A stretch of 64,000 nt of DNA from Haloglycomyces albus DSM 45210 (GTDB taxonomy: Bacteria; Actinomycetota; Actinomycetes; Mycobacteriales; Micromonosporaceae), in the NCBI RefSeq assembly GCF_000527155.1, contig NZ_AZUQ01000001.1, positions 2,167,615-2,231,614 of the forward strand, read 5' to 3'. Of this stretch, positions 39,470 to 44,794 are shown piece after piece (positions within the stretch are counted from its first letter, which is position 1; each line of letters opens with the position of its first letter). The notes below the pieces were generated by a model. The model saw only the letters and a list, made by a program, of their open reading frames with translations. It was not told the origin of the DNA and searched no databases. The position numbers and the translations under genes were made by a program.

Positions 39470-39783
39470 TACTGTATTCAAATTTAGGATGCGGCTGGGT
39501 CACCGTTAACACCTTGTACTCTGCGTCGTCATCTCCGCTCCGCGTATGCTGAGGTAGCAGCTACAGGTTCGGCTCGGCGGTAGGGCAGTGTGACGGTCCC
39601 GGCCCGCCGGTTGGATCGACCCGTTCGTAAACGAGGTGCACGACCCCACTCCGACGTGCGCTCAAGGACAATCCCCCGGGGGTCGGTTACGGCATTGCCG
39701 TGGTCTCGTGTGTCGCTCGTTTGCGTCCGGTGGGGCGTGATTGGTCAGCCACGCCGGAACGAGAACAACGCACAGAAGGTAGA
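39470..39783. other. Gene-free stretch before the arginase-like gene
   Basis: 314 nt with only overlapping composition-driven frames. A ribosome site (AGAAGGTAG) sits at its right edge. I see no clear promoter pair, repeat or RNA. Confidence 0.5.
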
Positions 39784-40698
39784 ATGCCAGTGGACCGATC
39801 CAGGAAAATTGCCATACTCGATGCCCCATCGAACTTGGGCCTTCGGCCACCGGCACCGCACACCGTTCCCGGTTGCGCCAAAGCTCCCGGTGCATTGCGC
39901 GACCAGCGCCTGATCCATCGATTGAAAGCTCGCGATACCGGCTGTTTGACTCCGCCACGTTACGATCCGACCCATTGGCAGCCCGGAGACGGGGTGGATC
40001 AGGCCGCCGAGATAGGGCGTTACACCCGTCGCTTGGCCGATCGGATTGAAGACATGTGGCGGGAACGAACGTTTCCACTGGTATTGGGTGGTGATTGTTC
40101 GATCGTCCTCGGGCCCTTGTTGGCGTCTCGCCGACGGTCCGACCGCGACCGCTCACGCCGCGGACTGGTCTTCATTGACGGAAATTCGGATTTTCGACAC
40201 CCGGGTAACAGCGAATTCGTGGGAGCCGCCGCCGCTGAGGAGTTGGCATTGGCGACCGGTCGGGGACAACCCGACCTCACTGATATCGAAGGCCTGCGCC
40301 CGTACGTGGAACAGGATTCGGTGGCCCTATTGGGGATTCGTACCGACGATCCGCATCGGGTGGAGCTCGAGGCGTCGGGAATCGCGGCACGAACCTCACC
40401 GCGTCTCAGAGCCGAGGGGCCGCAGCGTTCGGCTCAGTGGGCCTGCGACAGGCTGGGGAACGTCGCGACCTTTTGGCTGCATGTAGACGTCGACGTCCTG
40501 GACCCGTCGGTGATGCCGGCGGTCGACGGTCCCGTCAACGGAGGAATATCGATCGGCGAACTGGGGCATTTGGTCAGCGCGATCGTGTCGGATCAGCGCT
40601 GCGTCGGGATGGATATTACGGTGTTCGATCCCGATGGCGATCCCACCGGTGAATACGGGAGGGCCTTGGTGGACATGCTGGTGTCCGCCCTCACCTGA
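39784..40698 (+). CDS. Arginase/ureohydrolase-fold protein lacking both metal-binding His
   Basis: 304 residues from ATG 39784. The ureohydrolase fold is clear: LVLGGDCSIVLGPLLASRRR, RGLVFIDGNSDFRHPGNSEF, VALLGIRTDD and FWLHVDVDVLDPSVMPAVDGPVNGGISIGEL. In active arginases the first motif is GGDHS and the second DAHxD; here they read GGDCS and DGNSD, so both His ligands are missing while the Asp ligands remain. GGDCS occurs in a known actinobacterial subgroup; the Asn is a further change. Binuclear manganese catalysis is doubtful. Substrate unknown. Confidence 0.85.
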   Translation: MPVDRSRKIAILDAPSNLGLRPPAPHTVPGCAKAPGALRDQRLIHRLKARDTGCLTPPRYDPTHWQPGDGVDQAAEIGRYTRRLADRIEDMWRERTFPLVLGGDCSIVLGPLLASRRRSDRDRSRRGLVFIDGNSDFRHPGNSEFVGAAAAEELALATGRGQPDLTDIEGLRPYVEQDSVALLGIRTDDPHRVELEASGIAARTSPRLRAEGPQRSAQWACDRLGNVATFWLHVDVDVLDPSVMPAVDGPVNGGISIGELGHLVSAIVSDQRCVGMDITVFDPDGDPTGEYGRALVDMLVSALT

Positions 40699-40704
40699 CT
40701 GAGG

Positions 40705-42282
40705 CTAATAGTGCTTCCACTCGGTCCGTGAGTACTCCACGATAACCGGGTCGATCAAGGTATTGGGCGGTAGATCGCGCCGTTGTCGATCGACGGGGAA
40801 ACTCTGTGCCGCCGCGAGGCTCTCTGAGTTCATGGAGCGAAGCGGACCGATGCTGTCGTCCAGACTCAAAGTCGGCTTACCTTCGCTACTCACCGAGTGG
40901 AATCCCCAGTCGCCGAAGGTGGGCACGCTGACCCAGTAGGAGACCGGGTCGAACCCGGCTTCTTCCAAGGTCGAGGCGACCGTCCAATACGAATCGGGAG
41001 CGAAGTATGGGGATGAGGATTGAATCGTCATCCGTCCTTCGTCCCCCAAAGCTTGGCGTGCCAGGGAATAGAACTCGACCGAATAGAGCTTGGCGAGTTC
41101 GGTGGAGTCCGGGTCCGGCATGTCGACGATGATGGTGTCCCAGGTGTCGTTCTGCTCCCGGAGCCAGGTGAAGGCGTCGTCGTTGACGACGTCGACTCGA
41201 TCGTCGTGCATCGCCCCCTGGTTGAGATCGACGAGCCGTTCGTAGCTCATCGCCAATTCGGTGACCGCTGGATCCAGGTCGACCAATGTGATCGTGTCAA
41301 CGTCGGGGTACCGTACGACCTCCCGTACCGCGAGTCCGTCGCCTCCTCCCAAGATCAACACGTCGTCACGTGGCCCGTCCATGATGGGATGGACAAGGGC
41401 TTCGTGGTAGCGATACTCGTCGACCGAGGAGAACTGTAGGTCGCCGTTGAGGAACATACGGAAGTCGTCGGTTTGAAACGGCGAGATCGATTCGGTCAGG
41501 ACGATGTCCTGGTACTGGGTGGTATCGCTGTAGATGATGGGGTGGGAGTAGAACTCCTGCCGCGCCGAGGCCTCGATTTGCTTGGTGAACACGAAGACCG
41601 ACACCAGCGACACCGCAACCAGCGCCGCCAGGCTCCCGGTCAGAATACGGCCGAGGCGAGTCAAGTCGGGACGGAAGACGGCGAACACCAACACCAGACC
41701 GGCGATGGCGTTGACCGCACCGACCAGAACGGCCCCTCGGATTTGTCCCATGAAGGGTAGGAGTAGAAACGGGAAGGCCAAGCCCCCGATCAGTCCACCC
41801 AGATAGTCCGCGGCATTGAGATCGGCCACCGCCGTTCCCGCCGATTGTTTCTTGATCCGCTGGAGAAGTTCCATCAGCAGAGGAATTTCCGCGCCGACCA
41901 GGCCTCCGATCAGAAAGGCGATGGTCACCAGCGGCGCGGTGTAGAGATGCAGCCAGGCGAAGGAGGCGTACAGGGCGACCACGCTGAGACCGCCGATTCC
42001 TGCCAGGGCCAACTCGATGAGTGCGAACGACAGCGCGGGACGTTTCTGGAGTGGTTTGGCGGCCAAGGCCCCCAACCCCATGGCGAAGACCATCACACTG
42101 AGCACAATCGATGCTTGCGCTGCGGTATTACCGATGAGATAGGCTCCGAGCGTGATGAGAGCCAGCTCGTATACCAGACCACAGGCGGCACAGACGAAAA
42201 CCGTCGCCAAGAGAATCGCTCGTGACAAACGGGTGCGTTGAATCGGGTTGGGGACGGTTGCTTCTGCGGACGCAGTGGTCAT
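40705..42282 (-). CDS. Membrane-anchored polyamine aminopropyltransferase-like protein
   Basis: 525 residues from ATG 42282 (MTTASAEATVPN), which has GAAGAGAG upstream. The N-terminal half carries seven or eight membrane spans (RAILLATVFVCAACGLVYELALI first). The C-terminal half is a spermidine-synthase-like Rossmann domain: DDVLILGGGDGLAVREVVRYPDVDTITLVDLDPAVTELA, then the acidic active-site loop TIIVDMPDPDSTELAKLYSVEFYSLA. The natural acceptor is unknown. It ends the five-gene DUF4178-DUF2617-DUF4247-DUF350 group, a linkage seen in other actinobacteria, so its role is probably envelope-related rather than general polyamine synthesis. Confidence 0.88.
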   Translation of the reverse strand: MTTASAEATVPNPIQRTRLSRAILLATVFVCAACGLVYELALITLGAYLIGNTAAQASIVLSVMVFAMGLGALAAKPLQKRPALSFALIELALAGIGGLSVVALYASFAWLHLYTAPLVTIAFLIGGLVGAEIPLLMELLQRIKKQSAGTAVADLNAADYLGGLIGGLAFPFLLLPFMGQIRGAVLVGAVNAIAGLVLVFAVFRPDLTRLGRILTGSLAALVAVSLVSVFVFTKQIEASARQEFYSHPIIYSDTTQYQDIVLTESISPFQTDDFRMFLNGDLQFSSVDEYRYHEALVHPIMDGPRDDVLILGGGDGLAVREVVRYPDVDTITLVDLDPAVTELAMSYERLVDLNQGAMHDDRVDVVNDDAFTWLREQNDTWDTIIVDMPDPDSTELAKLYSVEFYSLARQALGDEGRMTIQSSSPYFAPDSYWTVASTLEEAGFDPVSYWVSVPTFGDWGFHSVSSEGKPTLSLDDSIGPLRSMNSESLAAAQSFPVDRQRRDLPPNTLIDPVIVEYSRTEWKHY

Positions 42283-42406
42283 GGTGCTCTCTTCTGAGAA
42301 ATCGGGTGGGACGGGAAGATGTGTGTCGTGGACCGACAAGGTGGACCGTTACCGGAGGTAGACGGTGCGACCGGAGAAATCTTCCCGTCGCCGGGGACAC
42401 TGTCTG

Positions 42407-42832
42407 TTACGACAATGCCATGGCGATGACGCCTCCGATCGCGATGTGCATGGTCGAGGTGACCCATACGGCAGGGTGCAGTTCCTCCGAGGTAACGATC
42501 TTGCCGAGTTTTCCGGGAGTAAGAGCGTCCAAGAGGAGGAACGCCACGGCCATGGCGGCGAGACCGATGGCTCCATACGTGAAAGTGCCGGCGAGCCCCT
42601 GTACCAGGTTTCCACTGCTGGCCCAGATTGCTCCCACGGTAATGATTCCGATTCCCAGGATATTGGACGACAGCAGTAGTGCGGCGTTCTTATTGCGTTC
42701 GGTCCAGATCAAGGTGCCGATGCGACCGGGGGTCAGCAGATCGACCAGGAAGTAGCCGATGATCATCAGGGCAATGCCGACCAGGCTGTACGAGGCGGCA
42801 CCGATGATGTTGTCGAGGTAGTTGTCGTACAT
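42407..42832 (-). CDS. DUF350 membrane protein
   Basis: 141 residues with four spans arranged as two similar halves: SYSLVGIALMIIGYFLVDLLTPGRIGTLIWTERNKNAALLLSSNILGIGIITVGAIW and TYGAIGLAAMAVAFLLLDALTPGKLGKIVTSEELHPAVWVTSTMHIAIGGVIAMAL. Each half carries the DUF350 motif D-x-LTPGx-G. The family includes E. coli YjfL. Ribosome site GAAAGG. The function is unknown; linkage to DUF4178 and aminopropyltransferase genes recurs in bacteria. Confidence 0.9.
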   Translation of the reverse strand: MYDNYLDNIIGAASYSLVGIALMIIGYFLVDLLTPGRIGTLIWTERNKNAALLLSSNILGIGIITVGAIWASSGNLVQGLAGTFTYGAIGLAAMAVAFLLLDALTPGKLGKIVTSEELHPAVWVTSTMHIAIGGVIAMALS

Positions 42833-42859
42833 AGTGGGCTTGAATACCTTTCAATATGC

Positions 42860-42878
42860 CTCGAACCGTCGGTTCGAG
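42860..42878. repeat. Inverted repeat CTCGAACC-GTC-GGTTCGAG
   Basis: A perfect 8-bp inverted repeat with a 3-nt spacer, 28 nt upstream of the DUF350 start. It could be an operator, marking a second promoter within the group, or an RNA hairpin. Confidence 0.45.
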
Positions 42879-43006
42879 TTCTGCTTTGTTCGTCACGGGT
42901 GCCTGAGGGCACACATCGCTGAATGATGTCAGACTGGGCGGCCGTTCCGGAAACGGGCGTCGGTTAAACTGCGTTTTTTCCTCTGGCTCAACGCATGTCC
43001 GTTTAC

Positions 43007-43038
43007 GGCCACACCCGTATCGGGGCCGGGGTGTGGCC
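43007..43038 (-). terminator. Hairpin between DUF4247 and DUF350
   Basis: A perfect 10-bp stem, GGCCACACCC with GGGTGTGGCC, with a 12-nt loop, 54 nt after the DUF4247 stop. No T-run follows on the minus strand, so this may attenuate rather than end the message. Confidence 0.5.
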
Positions 43039-43091
43039 GTACGGCCGCCTAGACCACATGGCGTACACGGTAGGCCGGCGGGCGAGACCGC

Positions 43092-43574
43092 CTACTTGCC
43101 GCTTCCCCAGCCGCCACCGCGATAAGAGGAGCTCGGCGGAGTAGAGGACCAGCCGAAGAAGGCGAAGTGACTGCCGTAGTAAGACGATCCGCGCCGGTAG
43201 TTGAACAGCAGGATCTTCGACCCGGAACCGTTGCTTTCAATCGACACGATGTGCTTGGGGTACTGCAGGAAGTACATATTGTCCCGGTAGCGGTCACTGC
43301 GTTGATCGGTGTTCTCTCGCAAGTCGTTACGCACATCCCTGGGGCTCTTGGATGAGGTGAAGACACGGGCGTTCCCGTTGTCGTCGTCCATCGAGGCCGC
43401 GCGGGAATAATTGTCCTCAATATGGGAGGTGGGGTCTTCCCTGCGTGAATTGCAGGAGACGAAGACCAGGGAGAGGCACAGCGCGCCGATGACACCGATA
43501 ACGATCCACATCGTGATCGAAATCTGACGTGCTTGCGTCTTCGCATCCTGGGTTTGGTCGTAGTCGTCGCTCAT
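43092..43574 (-). CDS. DUF4247 membrane-anchored protein
   Basis: 160 residues. One N-terminal span (ITMWIVIGVIGALCLSLVFVSCN, with a Cys that could be a lipobox-like residue but lacks a clear consensus) precedes a polar domain containing VRNDLRENTDQRSDRYRDNMYFLQYPKHIVSIESNGSGSKILLFNYRRGSSYYGSHFAFFGWS. It ends in a Gly/Ser-rich tail (YRGGGWGSGK). This matches actinobacterial DUF4247. Function unknown; encoded with DUF2617 and DUF4178. Confidence 0.83.
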   Translation of the reverse strand: MSDDYDQTQDAKTQARQISITMWIVIGVIGALCLSLVFVSCNSRREDPTSHIEDNYSRAASMDDDNGNARVFTSSKSPRDVRNDLRENTDQRSDRYRDNMYFLQYPKHIVSIESNGSGSKILLFNYRRGSSYYGSHFAFFGWSSTPPSSSYRGGGWGSGK

Positions 43575-43679
43575 ATTACTGAGCCTTCCTCTGTTTTCCG
43601 GGGGTCGTATAGGCGGATGGATGTCGTCCCAATCGTCGCGGGAACGACGATGATTGGGATCGGTCCAAGGTTTGTCAGG

Positions 43680-44177
43680 TCAGTGTAGTTGACGTACGCA
43701 ACTTCTCGTGGTAACCACCTCACCGTATTGTGGATACGTATGGACTGTAGTCCATTCCATCTGGGTATCGCCAACTTCCAGCGCGGTGATCGCGTCGGGC
43801 GAGTCGCCGAAGACACCGATGAGCGTGCCGTCTCGGTGAGCTCTCGCCTGAAGTCCGCGAATCCGTGTGCGTAGGTCGGGCAGCGACAACGTCTCGACGA
43901 CACAGGTGTACTCATGCCGCCATTGACCCGCGTTCTGTCCGAATTCGGAGGGAAGGTCGGGGTCGAGATCGGTTCGGTAGGCGAGGGTTTCAGCAAGTGT
44001 GCCCTCGGGTGTGGCCACCACCGCCTGATGACTCGCTCCCAACAACCGAAGGGAAAGTGCCAATGGGCCGCGTTGGGCCTCAATGGAATCCAACACGGGC
44101 AATGCGGGAGCGTCGGGGCGAAAGGTCAGGTTGGCGGCGGACACGTCGATAAAGGGAACGTCCAGTGCGGTAATCAC
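43680..44177 (-). CDS. DUF2617 protein
   Basis: 165 residues from GTG 44177, which overlaps the DUF4178 stop by 4 nt; an upstream extension of the frame inside DUF4178 is rejected. Soluble, with the family stretches FIDVSAANLTFRP, LGASHQAVVATPEGTLAETLAYR, EYTCVVETLSL and IGVFGDSPDAITALEV, ending WTTVHTYPQYGEVVTTRSCVR. DUF2617 has no known activity; the recurrent HTYPQ.GE.V.T.S segment is its hallmark. Confidence 0.87.
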   Translation of the reverse strand: MITALDVPFIDVSAANLTFRPDAPALPVLDSIEAQRGPLALSLRLLGASHQAVVATPEGTLAETLAYRTDLDPDLPSEFGQNAGQWRHEYTCVVETLSLPDLRTRIRGLQARAHRDGTLIGVFGDSPDAITALEVGDTQMEWTTVHTYPQYGEVVTTRSCVRQLH

Positions 44178-44791
44178 GTGTCGGGATTCTGGTGGAAGAT
44201 CGTGATTTGATTGCGGTCGAGTGTCAGACCGAGCCCCGCCTCCCAAGACCCGTCCTCGCCGAAGGCTTCGAAACTGATGAGTTTCCCTTCCGGCCCACGA
44301 TAATCGTGATAGCGCACCGTTCCGTTCTCGGCGAGCCCCGTCGTCGCTTCGCTGGTGTACTTGGCTTTCCCGGATTCGTCGAGGCGGAACTTCTCACCCT
44401 CGTGTTCCACCGAGGAAGCACCCGGTTCCATGTCGGCGATCGGGATCTGGTCCCAGAGCACGATTTCCAAATCGGGGTCGGCCTCGACCGACAACCAACG
44501 TTTGACCCCCGTACCGGTGTCCAAGAAGTGTTCCGCCCAGGTGTAGTCGCCTTCCCGCAGACGCAGAGATCCGCGGACCGCGACGGTCTTGCCGTACACC
44601 TCGATCATGTCGCCGGCGGCGATCGTGCGGGGGTTTCCGCGTAGGATGTCGGAATCGCCGTCCGCGAAAGGGTCCTGAGGGGCGTTGTACTTGTCGTGCT
44701 CGGCCCGCTGCTTTTCCTTGACGCCCTTCCAGACCCAGTAAGCGACACCGGCCGCGGCCACGATAATGAGAATGATCAAAAGTGTAGTCAT
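44174..44791 (-). CDS. DUF4178 protein
   Basis: 205 residues from ATG 44791 (AAAGGA five nt upstream; a GTG one codon earlier is less well placed). One N-terminal span (LLIILIIVAAAGVAYWVWKG) is followed by a beta-rich DUF4178 domain with GDMIEVYGKTVAVRGSLRLREGDYTWAEHFLDTG, KRWLSVEADPDLEIVLWDQI and RYHDYRGPEGKLISFEAFGEDGSWEAGLG. E. coli YjfK belongs to this family. First gene of the leftward five-gene group. Confidence 0.88.
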   Translation of the reverse strand: MTTLLIILIIVAAAGVAYWVWKGVKEKQRAEHDKYNAPQDPFADGDSDILRGNPRTIAAGDMIEVYGKTVAVRGSLRLREGDYTWAEHFLDTGTGVKRWLSVEADPDLEIVLWDQIPIADMEPGASSVEHEGEKFRLDESGKAKYTSEATTGLAENGTVRYHDYRGPEGKLISFEAFGEDGSWEAGLGLTLDRNQITIFHQNPDT

Positions 44792-44794
44792 CAC

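What the first reader, a model, noticed from the sequence alone, without database searches (positions are those of the whole stretch)
40705..44791. Five-gene envelope-polyamine system: DUF4178, DUF2617, DUF4247, DUF350 and a membrane aminopropyltransferase-like protein
Four domains of unknown function and a multi-span protein fused to a spermidine-synthase-like domain share one strand. DUF4178 (YjfK) and DUF350 (YjfL) also occur with PspA-like and ATP-grasp genes in other bacteria, where envelope stress is suspected. Here there is no PspA, but four of five proteins are membrane-bound. A plausible reading is polyamine modification of a lipid or surface component. This is the best candidate in the window for an undescribed system.
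Basis: partly seen in the sequence, partly recalled or inferred. Interest (0 to 1): 0.75.

Follow-up and report, generated by a model that had tools for sequence, protein, structure and literature searches.

The report
Five-gene membrane aminopropyltransferase operon
A known but uncharacterised five-gene operon of actinobacteria pairs a membrane enzyme that should need decarboxylated S-adenosylmethionine with a small unknown protein (DUF2617) that may be the missing, unrecognised source of that compound.

Summary
In detail: DUF4178, DUF2617, DUF4247, DUF350 and a seven-span aminopropyltransferase lie in this order on the minus strand, 40705-44794. The unit is not undescribed: Ravi et al. 2024 (PMC11237479, passages) report it as a PspA-less polyamine variant. 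YjfK is DUF2491, not DUF4178.

New here: the enzyme keeps motifs of a decarboxylated-AdoMet user, yet this one-contig genome has no detectable AdoMet decarboxylase (AdoMetDC). Of 25 sampled genomes with the enzyme, 22 carry DUF2617 beside it. The 3 without DUF2617 all encode AdoMetDC; only 2 of the 22 do, with Tyr at the catalytic Cys position. In 246 genomes of the phylum DUF2617 above cut-off occurs only with the enzyme (16 of 16); Haloferax is an exception elsewhere.

DUF2617's HTYPQ motif resembles AdoMetDC, and its AlphaFold model matched the uncleaved human AdoMetDC proenzyme best (Z 8.1, next 4.6). A second model did not replicate this, and profile similarity is weak.

Best reading: DUF2617 is a compact AdoMetDC-like protein replacing AdoMetDC as donor source for aminopropylation at the membrane. 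Unit: near certain; AdoMetDC-like fold: about 0.6; AdoMetDC activity: about 0.45. Acceptor unknown.

The parts
44174..44794 (-). DUF4178 protein, 206 aa, GTG start; one N-terminal TM helix then a soluble domain
   Evidence: PF13785 122.6 bits, cut-off 25; TM 4-22
43680..44177 (-). DUF2617 protein, 165 aa, GTG start overlapping the DUF4178 stop (GTGA); proposed compact AdoMetDC-like protein. Residues of interest: D11, S49-H50, E63, Y67 (Cys in most relatives), T131, H146, P149
   Evidence: PF10936 125.2 bits; AF2 pLDDT 90.9; VIA rank 1 human AdoMetDC proenzyme Z 8.1, not reproduced; residue census of 61 sequences
43092..43574 (-). DUF4247 protein, 160 aa; one TM with lipobox-like FVSC at 38-41, rest probably extracytoplasmic
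   Evidence: PF14042 59.4 bits; TM 20-38
42833..43091 (.). 259-bp gap between DUF4247 and DUF350 with a perfect 13-bp inverted repeat (43004-43016/43029-43041) and a 9-bp palindrome (42860-42878); may mark an internal terminator or operator
   Evidence: the 42860-42878 stem is listed as terminator-like on the + strand (8 such sites found in the region, 3.9 expected by chance)
42407..42832 (-). DUF350 protein, 141 aa, four TM helices
   Evidence: PF03994 85.4 bits; four segments
40705..42339 (-). Membrane aminopropyltransferase: seven TM segments then a spermidine-synthase-like domain (residues about 309-492). TTG start at 42339 as listed; an ATG at 42282 is possible
   Evidence: NF002956 647.4 bits, cut-off 472; PF01564 119.6 bits; solved aminopropyltransferases from E 5.9e-31; GGGDG and DxPDP motifs

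Best explanation
The five genes are one functional unit built round a membrane-bound aminopropyltransferase. DUF2617 is a compact, single-chain relative of S-adenosylmethionine decarboxylase that takes the place of AdoMetDC: its invariant Ser49 is the candidate pyruvoyl serine, with His146, Thr131 and (in most relatives) Cys67 as candidate catalytic partners. It would make decarboxylated AdoMet for the neighbouring enzyme, which transfers the aminopropyl group to an acceptor other than putrescine at or in the membrane, with DUF350, DUF4178 and the DUF4247 lipoprotein-like protein as membrane partners. Shown here: the conserved unit; the occurrence of DUF2617 only with the membrane enzyme in the sampled phylum; the absence of detectable AdoMetDC in most carriers; the complementary pattern. 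Inferred with moderate support: the AdoMetDC-like fold. Inferred only: decarboxylase activity, acceptor, roles of the other three proteins.
For: 1) Missing enzyme: no PF02675 in the own genome (3.535 Mb, one contig, 99.36% complete), while 8 of 14 control genomes ring. 2) Donor-site motifs kept: GGGDG in 12 and DxPDP in 12 of the 14 aligned enzymes outside the Streptomyces-like genus, window included; match to solved aminopropyltransferases. 3) Complementarity: of 25 genomes with NF002956 over cut-off (18 of 98, 7 new), 22 have DUF2617, 2 of these also AdoMetDC; 3 lack DUF2617 (G031, G294, G078) and 3 of 3 have AdoMetDC. Fisher p 0.004 by genome, 0.04 by genus, 0.02 or 0.07 by lineage depending on how the mixed genus is counted. 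In those three the operon keeps the other four genes in order. 4) AdoMetDC occurs in 3 of 98 class genomes, all three with the membrane enzyme. 5) DUF2617 above cut-off is found only with the enzyme: 16 of 16 in 98 genomes and 16 of 16 in 246. 6) Fold: rank 1 of 1000 is 1msv, uncleaved human AdoMetDC, Z 8.1, 132 residues aligned of 165, rmsd 3.8; rank 2 Z 4.6. The resemblance was noted from sequence before the fold search. 7) C-half profile against AdoMetDC: score 23.4, shuffles max 19.5, 0 of 100 as good; the accepted class 1b/class 2 pair gives 23.2. 8) S49, H50, T131, H146 and P149 are identical in 61 of 61.
Against: The fold match was not replicated: a second model (Streptomyces DUF2617, pLDDT 91.6) gave PknH Z 5.0 at rank 1 and AdoMetDC/prozyme only Z 4.0 at rank 22; 1msv was not listed. 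Foldseek alone gives no E <= 0.001 match. The N-half, which must hold the catalytic serine, shows no profile similarity (55 of 100 shuffles as good); comparison with class 2 AdoMetDC segments is not significant; the DUF2617 profile finds no PDB sequence at E <= 10. Of 22 control families one, an ORF family of very low diversity, scored 28.1 against AdoMetDC, above DUF2617, and DUF350 scored 20.7. The window protein has Tyr where 52 of 61 have Cys. The swap rests on two independent lineages, and counted by lineage with the mixed genus as AdoMetDC-positive p is 0.07. In one of the three genomes AdoMetDC is fused to its own SpeE-like domain. Haloferax volcanii rings for DUF2617 but not for NF002956 over cut-off, so DUF2617 is not bound to this enzyme everywhere. 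In the Streptomyces-like genomes the enzyme's motifs are partly lost while DUF2617 is well conserved. The seven-TM topology with positive loops inside would put the catalytic domain outside, away from a cytosolic donor.
Confidence: 0.45

Rival explanations
1. DUF2617 is not a decarboxylase but a binding or scaffold protein of the complex. The membrane enzyme uses another donor, for example AdoMet itself (3-amino-3-carboxypropyl or methyl transfer), or dcAdoMet from an enzyme not recognised here; the pattern with AdoMetDC is lineage coincidence.
For: No significant sequence link of the DUF2617 N-half to AdoMetDC; the fold match did not replicate; Streptomyces-like genomes keep DUF2617 with an enzyme of altered motifs; only two independent lineages show the swap; class 2 AdoMetDC was not excluded, as that search's controls were silent.
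Against: The Asp residues of the GGGDG and DxPDP motifs are kept in the window enzyme. DUF2617 is the one gene of the operon that is missing in the three genomes where it could be spared because AdoMetDC is present. Z 8.1 to uncleaved AdoMetDC stands clear of the next row.
Confidence: 0.33
2. DUF2617 is an AdoMetDC-fold protein that has changed substrate, as shown for SpeD-derived ornithine and arginine decarboxylases, and supplies the acceptor amine rather than the donor.
For: Neofunctionalised SpeD proteins are widespread, including in Actinomycetota (PMC10407285, passages).
Against: It leaves the donor unexplained in genomes without AdoMetDC, and does not predict loss of DUF2617 where AdoMetDC is present.
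Confidence: 0.12
3. An ordinary spermidine synthase that happens to be membrane-anchored, making spermidine from putrescine for general use, with the DUFs as passengers.
For: NF002956 is named polyamine aminopropyltransferase; one passage of PMC11841054 calls M. tuberculosis Rv2601 a spermidine synthase gene and says spermine synthesis has been reported in Streptomyces and Mycobacterium.
Against: No detectable AdoMetDC in 20 of 25 carriers. Conserved linkage to four other families. A study of the fused enzyme type reported no complementation of a spermidine synthase deletion (Li et al. 2019, recalled, paper not held).
Confidence: 0.08
4. A PSP-like envelope-stress module that senses polyamine levels or aminopropylation to adjust the membrane, as Ravi et al. 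propose, with DUF2617 and DUF4247 standing in for the PspA-CesT/Tir dyad. This can hold together with the best explanation.
For: Passages of PMC11237479; four of five proteins membrane-bound; the M. tuberculosis DUF4247 protein is reported to be highly expressed on exposure to lung surfactants (PMC3726780, passages).
Against: No stress role was tested here; DUF2617 tracks the absence of AdoMetDC in a way a PspA stand-in need not.
Confidence: 0.3

Closest known systems
DUF4247/DUF2617 polyamine operon variant without PspA (Ravi et al. 2024, PMC11237479, passages)
   Same: Same DUF4247 and DUF2617 pair replacing the CesT/Tir-PspA dyad; DUF350, DUF4178 and the 7TM-spermidine-synthase fusion are named in the same section; M. 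tuberculosis proteins CCP45394.1 and CCP45395.1 cited.
   Different: [quoted passage not shown] here no AdoMetDC was found in the genome. [quoted passage not shown]
PspA-CesT/Tir operon with 7TM spermidine-synthase fusion (e.g. AAN56744.1-AAN56747.1, PMC11237479, passages)
   Same: 7TM fusion enzyme, DUF350, DUF4178, a lipoprotein.
   Different: Has PspA and CesT/Tir; DUF2617 and DUF4247 are not named for it.
E. coli yjfIJKLMC
   Same: DUF350 (YjfL); polyamine theme through YjfC.
   Different: PspA-like YjfJ, DUF2491, DUF1190 and a GSP_synth ligase instead of an aminopropyltransferase.
Class 1b AdoMetDC (SpeD, PF02675)
   Same: Short H-T-[WY]-P motif, S-H dipeptide, aminopropyltransferase as metabolic partner.
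   Different: No Pfam match; DUF2617 is a longer single chain; no convincing similarity in the half with the candidate serine.
Class 2 AdoMetDC (PF01536, human 1msv)
   Same: Whole-length fold match of the window model, Z 8.1; single chain able to hold both halves.
   Different: DUF2617 has about half the length; sequence comparison not significant; the second model did not reproduce the match.

Membership tests
Polyamine aminopropyltransferase PRK03612 (NF002956) | Whole-protein score above the curated cut-off | tested here: met
   647.4 bits against 472
Polyamine aminopropyltransferase PRK03612 (NF002956) | Conserved donor-site motifs (GGGDG, DxPDP) | tested here: met
   Window protein LGGGDGLAVREV and VDMPDP; assignment of these motifs to donor binding is recalled
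Polyamine aminopropyltransferase PRK03612 (NF002956) | AdoMetDC partner in the genome | tested here: not met
   0 PF02675 matches in the own genome, 8 of 14 controls ring
Polyamine aminopropyltransferase PRK03612 (NF002956) | Makes spermidine from putrescine | not testable with these tools
   Needs assay
AdoMetDC / SpeD superfamily (for DUF2617) | Pfam match to AdoMet_dc (PF02675) or SAM_decarbox (PF01536) | tested here: not met
   Pfam scans of the window protein and of L283 give only DUF2617 at E <= 0.1
AdoMetDC / SpeD superfamily (for DUF2617) | AdoMetDC fold | tested here: inconclusive
   Z 8.1 to 1msv for the window model; not reproduced with the Streptomyces model
AdoMetDC / SpeD superfamily (for DUF2617) | Pyruvoyl-forming Ser with catalytic His and Cys (S63, H68, C83 of T. 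maritima, PMC10407285, passage) | tested here: inconclusive
   S49 and H146 61 of 61; position 67 Cys 52, Tyr 9, window Tyr; the equivalences are inferred
AdoMetDC / SpeD superfamily (for DUF2617) | Self-cleavage and AdoMet decarboxylation | not testable with these tools
   Needs purified protein
PspA-CesT/Tir polyamine operon (Ravi et al. 2024) | 7TM-spermidine-synthase fusion, DUF350 and DUF4178 together | tested here: met
PspA-CesT/Tir polyamine operon (Ravi et al. 2024) | PspA and CesT/Tir dyad in the operon | tested here: not met
   None among the five genes; rest of the genome not searched
E. coli yjf operon type | DUF2491 (YjfK) and GSP_synth ligase (YjfC) | tested here: not met
   YjfK and YjfC identified as such; neither family among the five window genes

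The most novel reading that the evidence does not exclude
DUF2617 is a third, compact single-chain class of S-adenosylmethionine decarboxylase (about 165 residues, pyruvoyl from Ser49), not recognised as such in the papers found, that feeds a membrane aminopropyltransferase in actinobacteria without a detectable AdoMetDC, so that these bacteria aminopropylate an unknown envelope component.
Probability: 0.4. Interest if true: 0.82.

Novelty: new variant of a known kind. Interest (0 to 1): 0.62.

Why it matters
Named carriers of DUF2617 beside the membrane enzyme include Glycomyces, Jiangella, Phytomonospora, Actinomadura, Longispora, many Streptomyces and a Solirubrobacteraceae MAG; Corynebacterium glutamicum has all five families and no AdoMetDC match, and M. 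tuberculosis is cited for two of them. If DUF2617 makes decarboxylated AdoMet, a step that looks absent from these bacteria is present, a domain of unknown function gains one, and the question of what the membrane 'spermidine synthase' really modifies becomes testable with a simple complementation assay. It would also give a prokaryotic single-chain counterpart of the eukaryotic AdoMetDC architecture.

Tried and rejected
Rejected: DUF4178 as YjfK (it is DUF2491). Rejected: an anti-phage system; PADLOC gives one match, Mad2, in the synthase-like region of the enzyme (51.7 bits), none for the other four. Rejected: a hidden AdoMetDC gene in the operon gap; the only ORF of 25 aa or more lying wholly in 42833-43091 has 27 aa.

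Led nowhere: DUF2617 on plasmids (no match) and in viral contigs (29 pattern matches, none confirmed); DUF2617 profile against PDB sequences (nothing at E <= 10); Foldseek against PDB and BFVD (nothing at E <= 0.001; one phage AdoMetDC at rank 36, E 0.36); N-half against C-half of DUF2617 (no signal); direct profile comparison with class 2 AdoMetDC segments (not significant). In the second VIA list the human proenzyme does not appear; VIA only re-aligns Foldseek's candidates, so this neither confirms nor excludes it. The class 2 AdoMetDC search was silent in its own controls, so it proves nothing. The first extraction script ignored strand and was repeated with strands.

Profile test controls: 18 neighbour-ORF families plus 4 operon families were scored against the AdoMetDC profile. 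One 438-aa ORF family scored 28.1, above DUF2617; it has almost no diversity (Neff 1.46), aligns over 14 columns away from the motif and by its composition looks like a non-coding frame, which I did not prove. DUF350 scored 20.7. So the profile evidence is only suggestive.

Rows dropped: L016 (DUF2617 of G095, with a repeat insertion) was left out of the profiles and the census; DUF2617 sequences over 88% alike were dropped (96 to 55, plus 6 later, giving the 61 of the census), AdoMetDC sequences over 85% alike were dropped (83 to 39). G224, with a DUF2617 match below cut-off (19.9 bits, E 8.9e-4) and no membrane enzyme over cut-off, is not counted among the 16.

In print: one search lists every paper of the held library with the word DUF2617: three, of which PMC11237479 and PMC13118837 were read in passages and PMC9505326 seen only in the listing. 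Only PMC11237479 treats the operon as far as seen; neither passage links DUF2617 to AdoMetDC. Most subscription journals are not held. Li et al. 2019 (Biochem J) could not be read and is cited from recall.

Full report
Observation. Five ORFs lie on the minus strand at 40705-44794. In order of transcription they are DUF4178, DUF2617, DUF4247, DUF350 and a membrane aminopropyltransferase; all pass Pfam gathering scores and the last passes the NCBIfam equivalog NF002956 with 647.4 bits against 472. DUF4178 and DUF2617 overlap at GTGA (sequence). Hydropathy supports one TM segment in DUF4178, one in DUF4247 with a lipobox-like FVSC, four in DUF350 and seven in the enzyme; DUF2617 has none. The 259-bp gap before DUF350 holds a perfect 13-bp inverted repeat and a 9-bp palindrome, so the unit may be two transcripts in this species.

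Conservation. In 98 genomes sampled from the class, the enzyme (NF002956 over cut-off) occurs in 18, DUF2617 in 16, DUF4247 in 12, DUF4178 in 16 and DUF350 in 28, 24 of them over cut-off. All 16 DUF2617 genomes and all 12 DUF4247 genomes are among the 18, with the genes on the same contig a few kilobases apart; 13 of the 16 DUF4178 genomes are. In 246 genomes of the phylum, the enzyme is in 18 and DUF2617 over cut-off in 16, all among those 18; a 17th, G224, matches below cut-off and lacks the enzyme. Three of the carriers, G205, G238 and G324, are outside the class. In 25 relatives' loci mapped in detail the gene order never changes; 20 have all five genes. Of 80 DUF2617 loci from named genomes (the best 80 of 516, capped), 15 have all five, 62 have DUF2617 and the enzyme only (all titled Streptomyces), 2 have DUF2617 alone and 1 has the enzyme on the other strand; none has AdoMetDC in the flank held. 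Among the named control genomes, Corynebacterium glutamicum rings for all five families and not for AdoMetDC. Haloferax volcanii rings for DUF2617 but neither for AdoMetDC nor for NF002956 over cut-off, though weakly for the latter: outside the phylum DUF2617 may have some other partner. The window genome is closest to Glycomyces in this gene among the loci (63 to 66% identity).

Prior description. Ravi et al. 2024 (PMC11237479; passages read) describe operons in which DUF4247 and DUF2617 replace the CesT/Tir-PspA dyad, citing M. tuberculosis proteins, and related operons with the 7TM-spermidine-synthase fusion, DUF350 and DUF4178. They suggest monitoring of polyamines or aminopropylation of other substrates. 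So the unit is not undescribed.

The paradox. Spermidine synthase takes its aminopropyl group from decarboxylated AdoMet (PMC10407285, passages). The window enzyme matches solved aminopropyltransferases and keeps GGGDG and DxPDP (the assignment of these motifs to donor binding is recalled). Yet the own genome, one contig and 99.36% complete, has no AdoMet_dc match while 8 of 14 controls ring. NF002956 finds only this one protein in it at E <= 0.001. Class 2 AdoMetDC could not be excluded, because the controls of that search were silent.

Complementarity. Across 25 genomes with the enzyme (18, 7 more), DUF2617 is present in 22. AdoMetDC is present in 5: all 3 that lack DUF2617 (G031 and G294 of one genus, G078 of another family) and 2 of the 22 that have it (G018 and G265, one genus, Streptomyces-like by DUF2617 similarity; the printed proteins are identical and have Tyr at the Cys position). 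Fisher p is 0.004 on genomes, 0.04 on genera, and 0.02 or 0.07 on lineages depending on how the mixed genus is counted; phylogeny weakens it. In G031, G294 and G078 the operon is DUF4178-DUF4247-DUF350-enzyme, with DUF2617 alone missing. No AdoMetDC was found in the 80 class genomes without the enzyme. Caveat: in G294 AdoMetDC is fused to its own SpeE-like domain.

DUF2617 and AdoMetDC. From the sequences I noted, before any fold search, the likeness of DUF2617 'GASHQV ... ETVAC' and 'H[TA]YPQ.G' to AdoMetDC 'SESHxxIHTWPE' and 'TCG' (notes). Profile comparison picks the same two places, one with support: the C-half scores 23.4 against a shuffled maximum of 19.5 in 100, and 24.4 with more diverse members, similar to the accepted class 1b/class 2 AdoMetDC pair (23.2). 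The N-half shows nothing, class 2 comparison shows nothing, and of 22 control families one reached 28.1 and DUF350 20.7. The AlphaFold model of the window protein (pLDDT 90.9, pTM 0.87) was re-aligned to Foldseek's 1000 best PDB chains: rank 1 is the uncleaved human AdoMetDC proenzyme 1msv, Z 8.1, rmsd 3.8, 132 residues, model 10-160; rank 2 has Z 4.6; human spermine synthase (its N-domain is AdoMetDC-like, recalled) is at Z 4.4, and two further AdoMetDC entries at 4.1 and 4.0. Foldseek itself gives nothing at E <= 0.001. A second model, from Streptomyces (pLDDT 91.6), did not reproduce this: best Z 5.0 to PknH, AdoMetDC/prozyme Z 4.0 at rank 22, 1msv not listed. The proenzyme may not have been among the candidates, which I could not check. 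Residues fitting the catalytic set are conserved: S49, H50, T131, H146 and P149 in 61 of 61, position 67 Cys in 52 and Tyr in 9, the window among the nine. T. maritima S63, H68 and C83 are the essential set (PMC10407285, passage); the uncleaved human protein carries Ala at its serine.

How it probably works. DUF2617 makes decarboxylated AdoMet or a like product next to the membrane enzyme, which aminopropylates something other than putrescine. That putrescine is not the acceptor rests on recall of Li et al. 2019 (not held), cited as reference 89 by Ravi et al. The nature of the acceptor and the roles of DUF350, DUF4178 and DUF4247 are inference. Two facts do not fit well: the seven-TM topology with positive loops inside would place the catalytic domain outside the cell, and in the Streptomyces-like genomes (L094-L097) the enzyme's motifs are partly lost while DUF2617 is strongly conserved.

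Verdict. The operon is real and known. The claim that DUF2617 stands in for AdoMetDC was not found in the passages seen of the held papers that name DUF2617. It rests on a consistent but limited pattern and on one of two fold comparisons, and can be tested in a single complementation experiment.

Noticed in passing
window 39700-40698 (+): An arginase/agmatinase-family gene (PF00491, 89.8 bits) ends 6 bp from the aminopropyltransferase, convergent with it. In Glycomyces relatives a homologue lies in the flank held in 4 of 10 loci, not always near.
   Followed up: partly
window 40705-42339 (-): Seven TM segments with positively charged loops on one side predict that the spermidine-synthase-like domain faces outside the cell, an odd place for a dcAdoMet user.
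   Followed up: partly
   Followed up: partly
window 43977-43979 (codon for residue 67 of DUF2617): Tyr replaces the near-invariant Cys in the window and in 5 of 5 Glycomyces copies aligned; the AdoMetDC copies of L079 and L279 also have Tyr at their Cys position.
   Followed up: no
L016 / L295 (G095): DUF2617 of a same-family genome carries a long low-complexity repeat insertion in the loop after the GASH motif.
   Followed up: no
L278 643-1866 (-): AdoMetDC and a SpeE-like domain in one ORF in G294, a genome that also has the membrane enzyme without DUF2617.
   Followed up: partly
window 42833-43091: Perfect 13-bp inverted repeat and 9-bp palindrome between DUF4247 and DUF350. The gap (259 bp) is longer than between the profile matches of ten Glycomyces loci (about 50-90 bp), though L288 and L175 have longer ones.
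   Followed up: partly
L044, L045, L046 (G055, G087, G016): DUF4178 in long open frames (509-576 aa) in genomes without the membrane enzyme over cut-off; a different context for this family.
   Followed up: no
Haloferax volcanii control genome: DUF2617 rings there without AdoMetDC and without NF002956 over cut-off; its partner is unknown.
   Followed up: no
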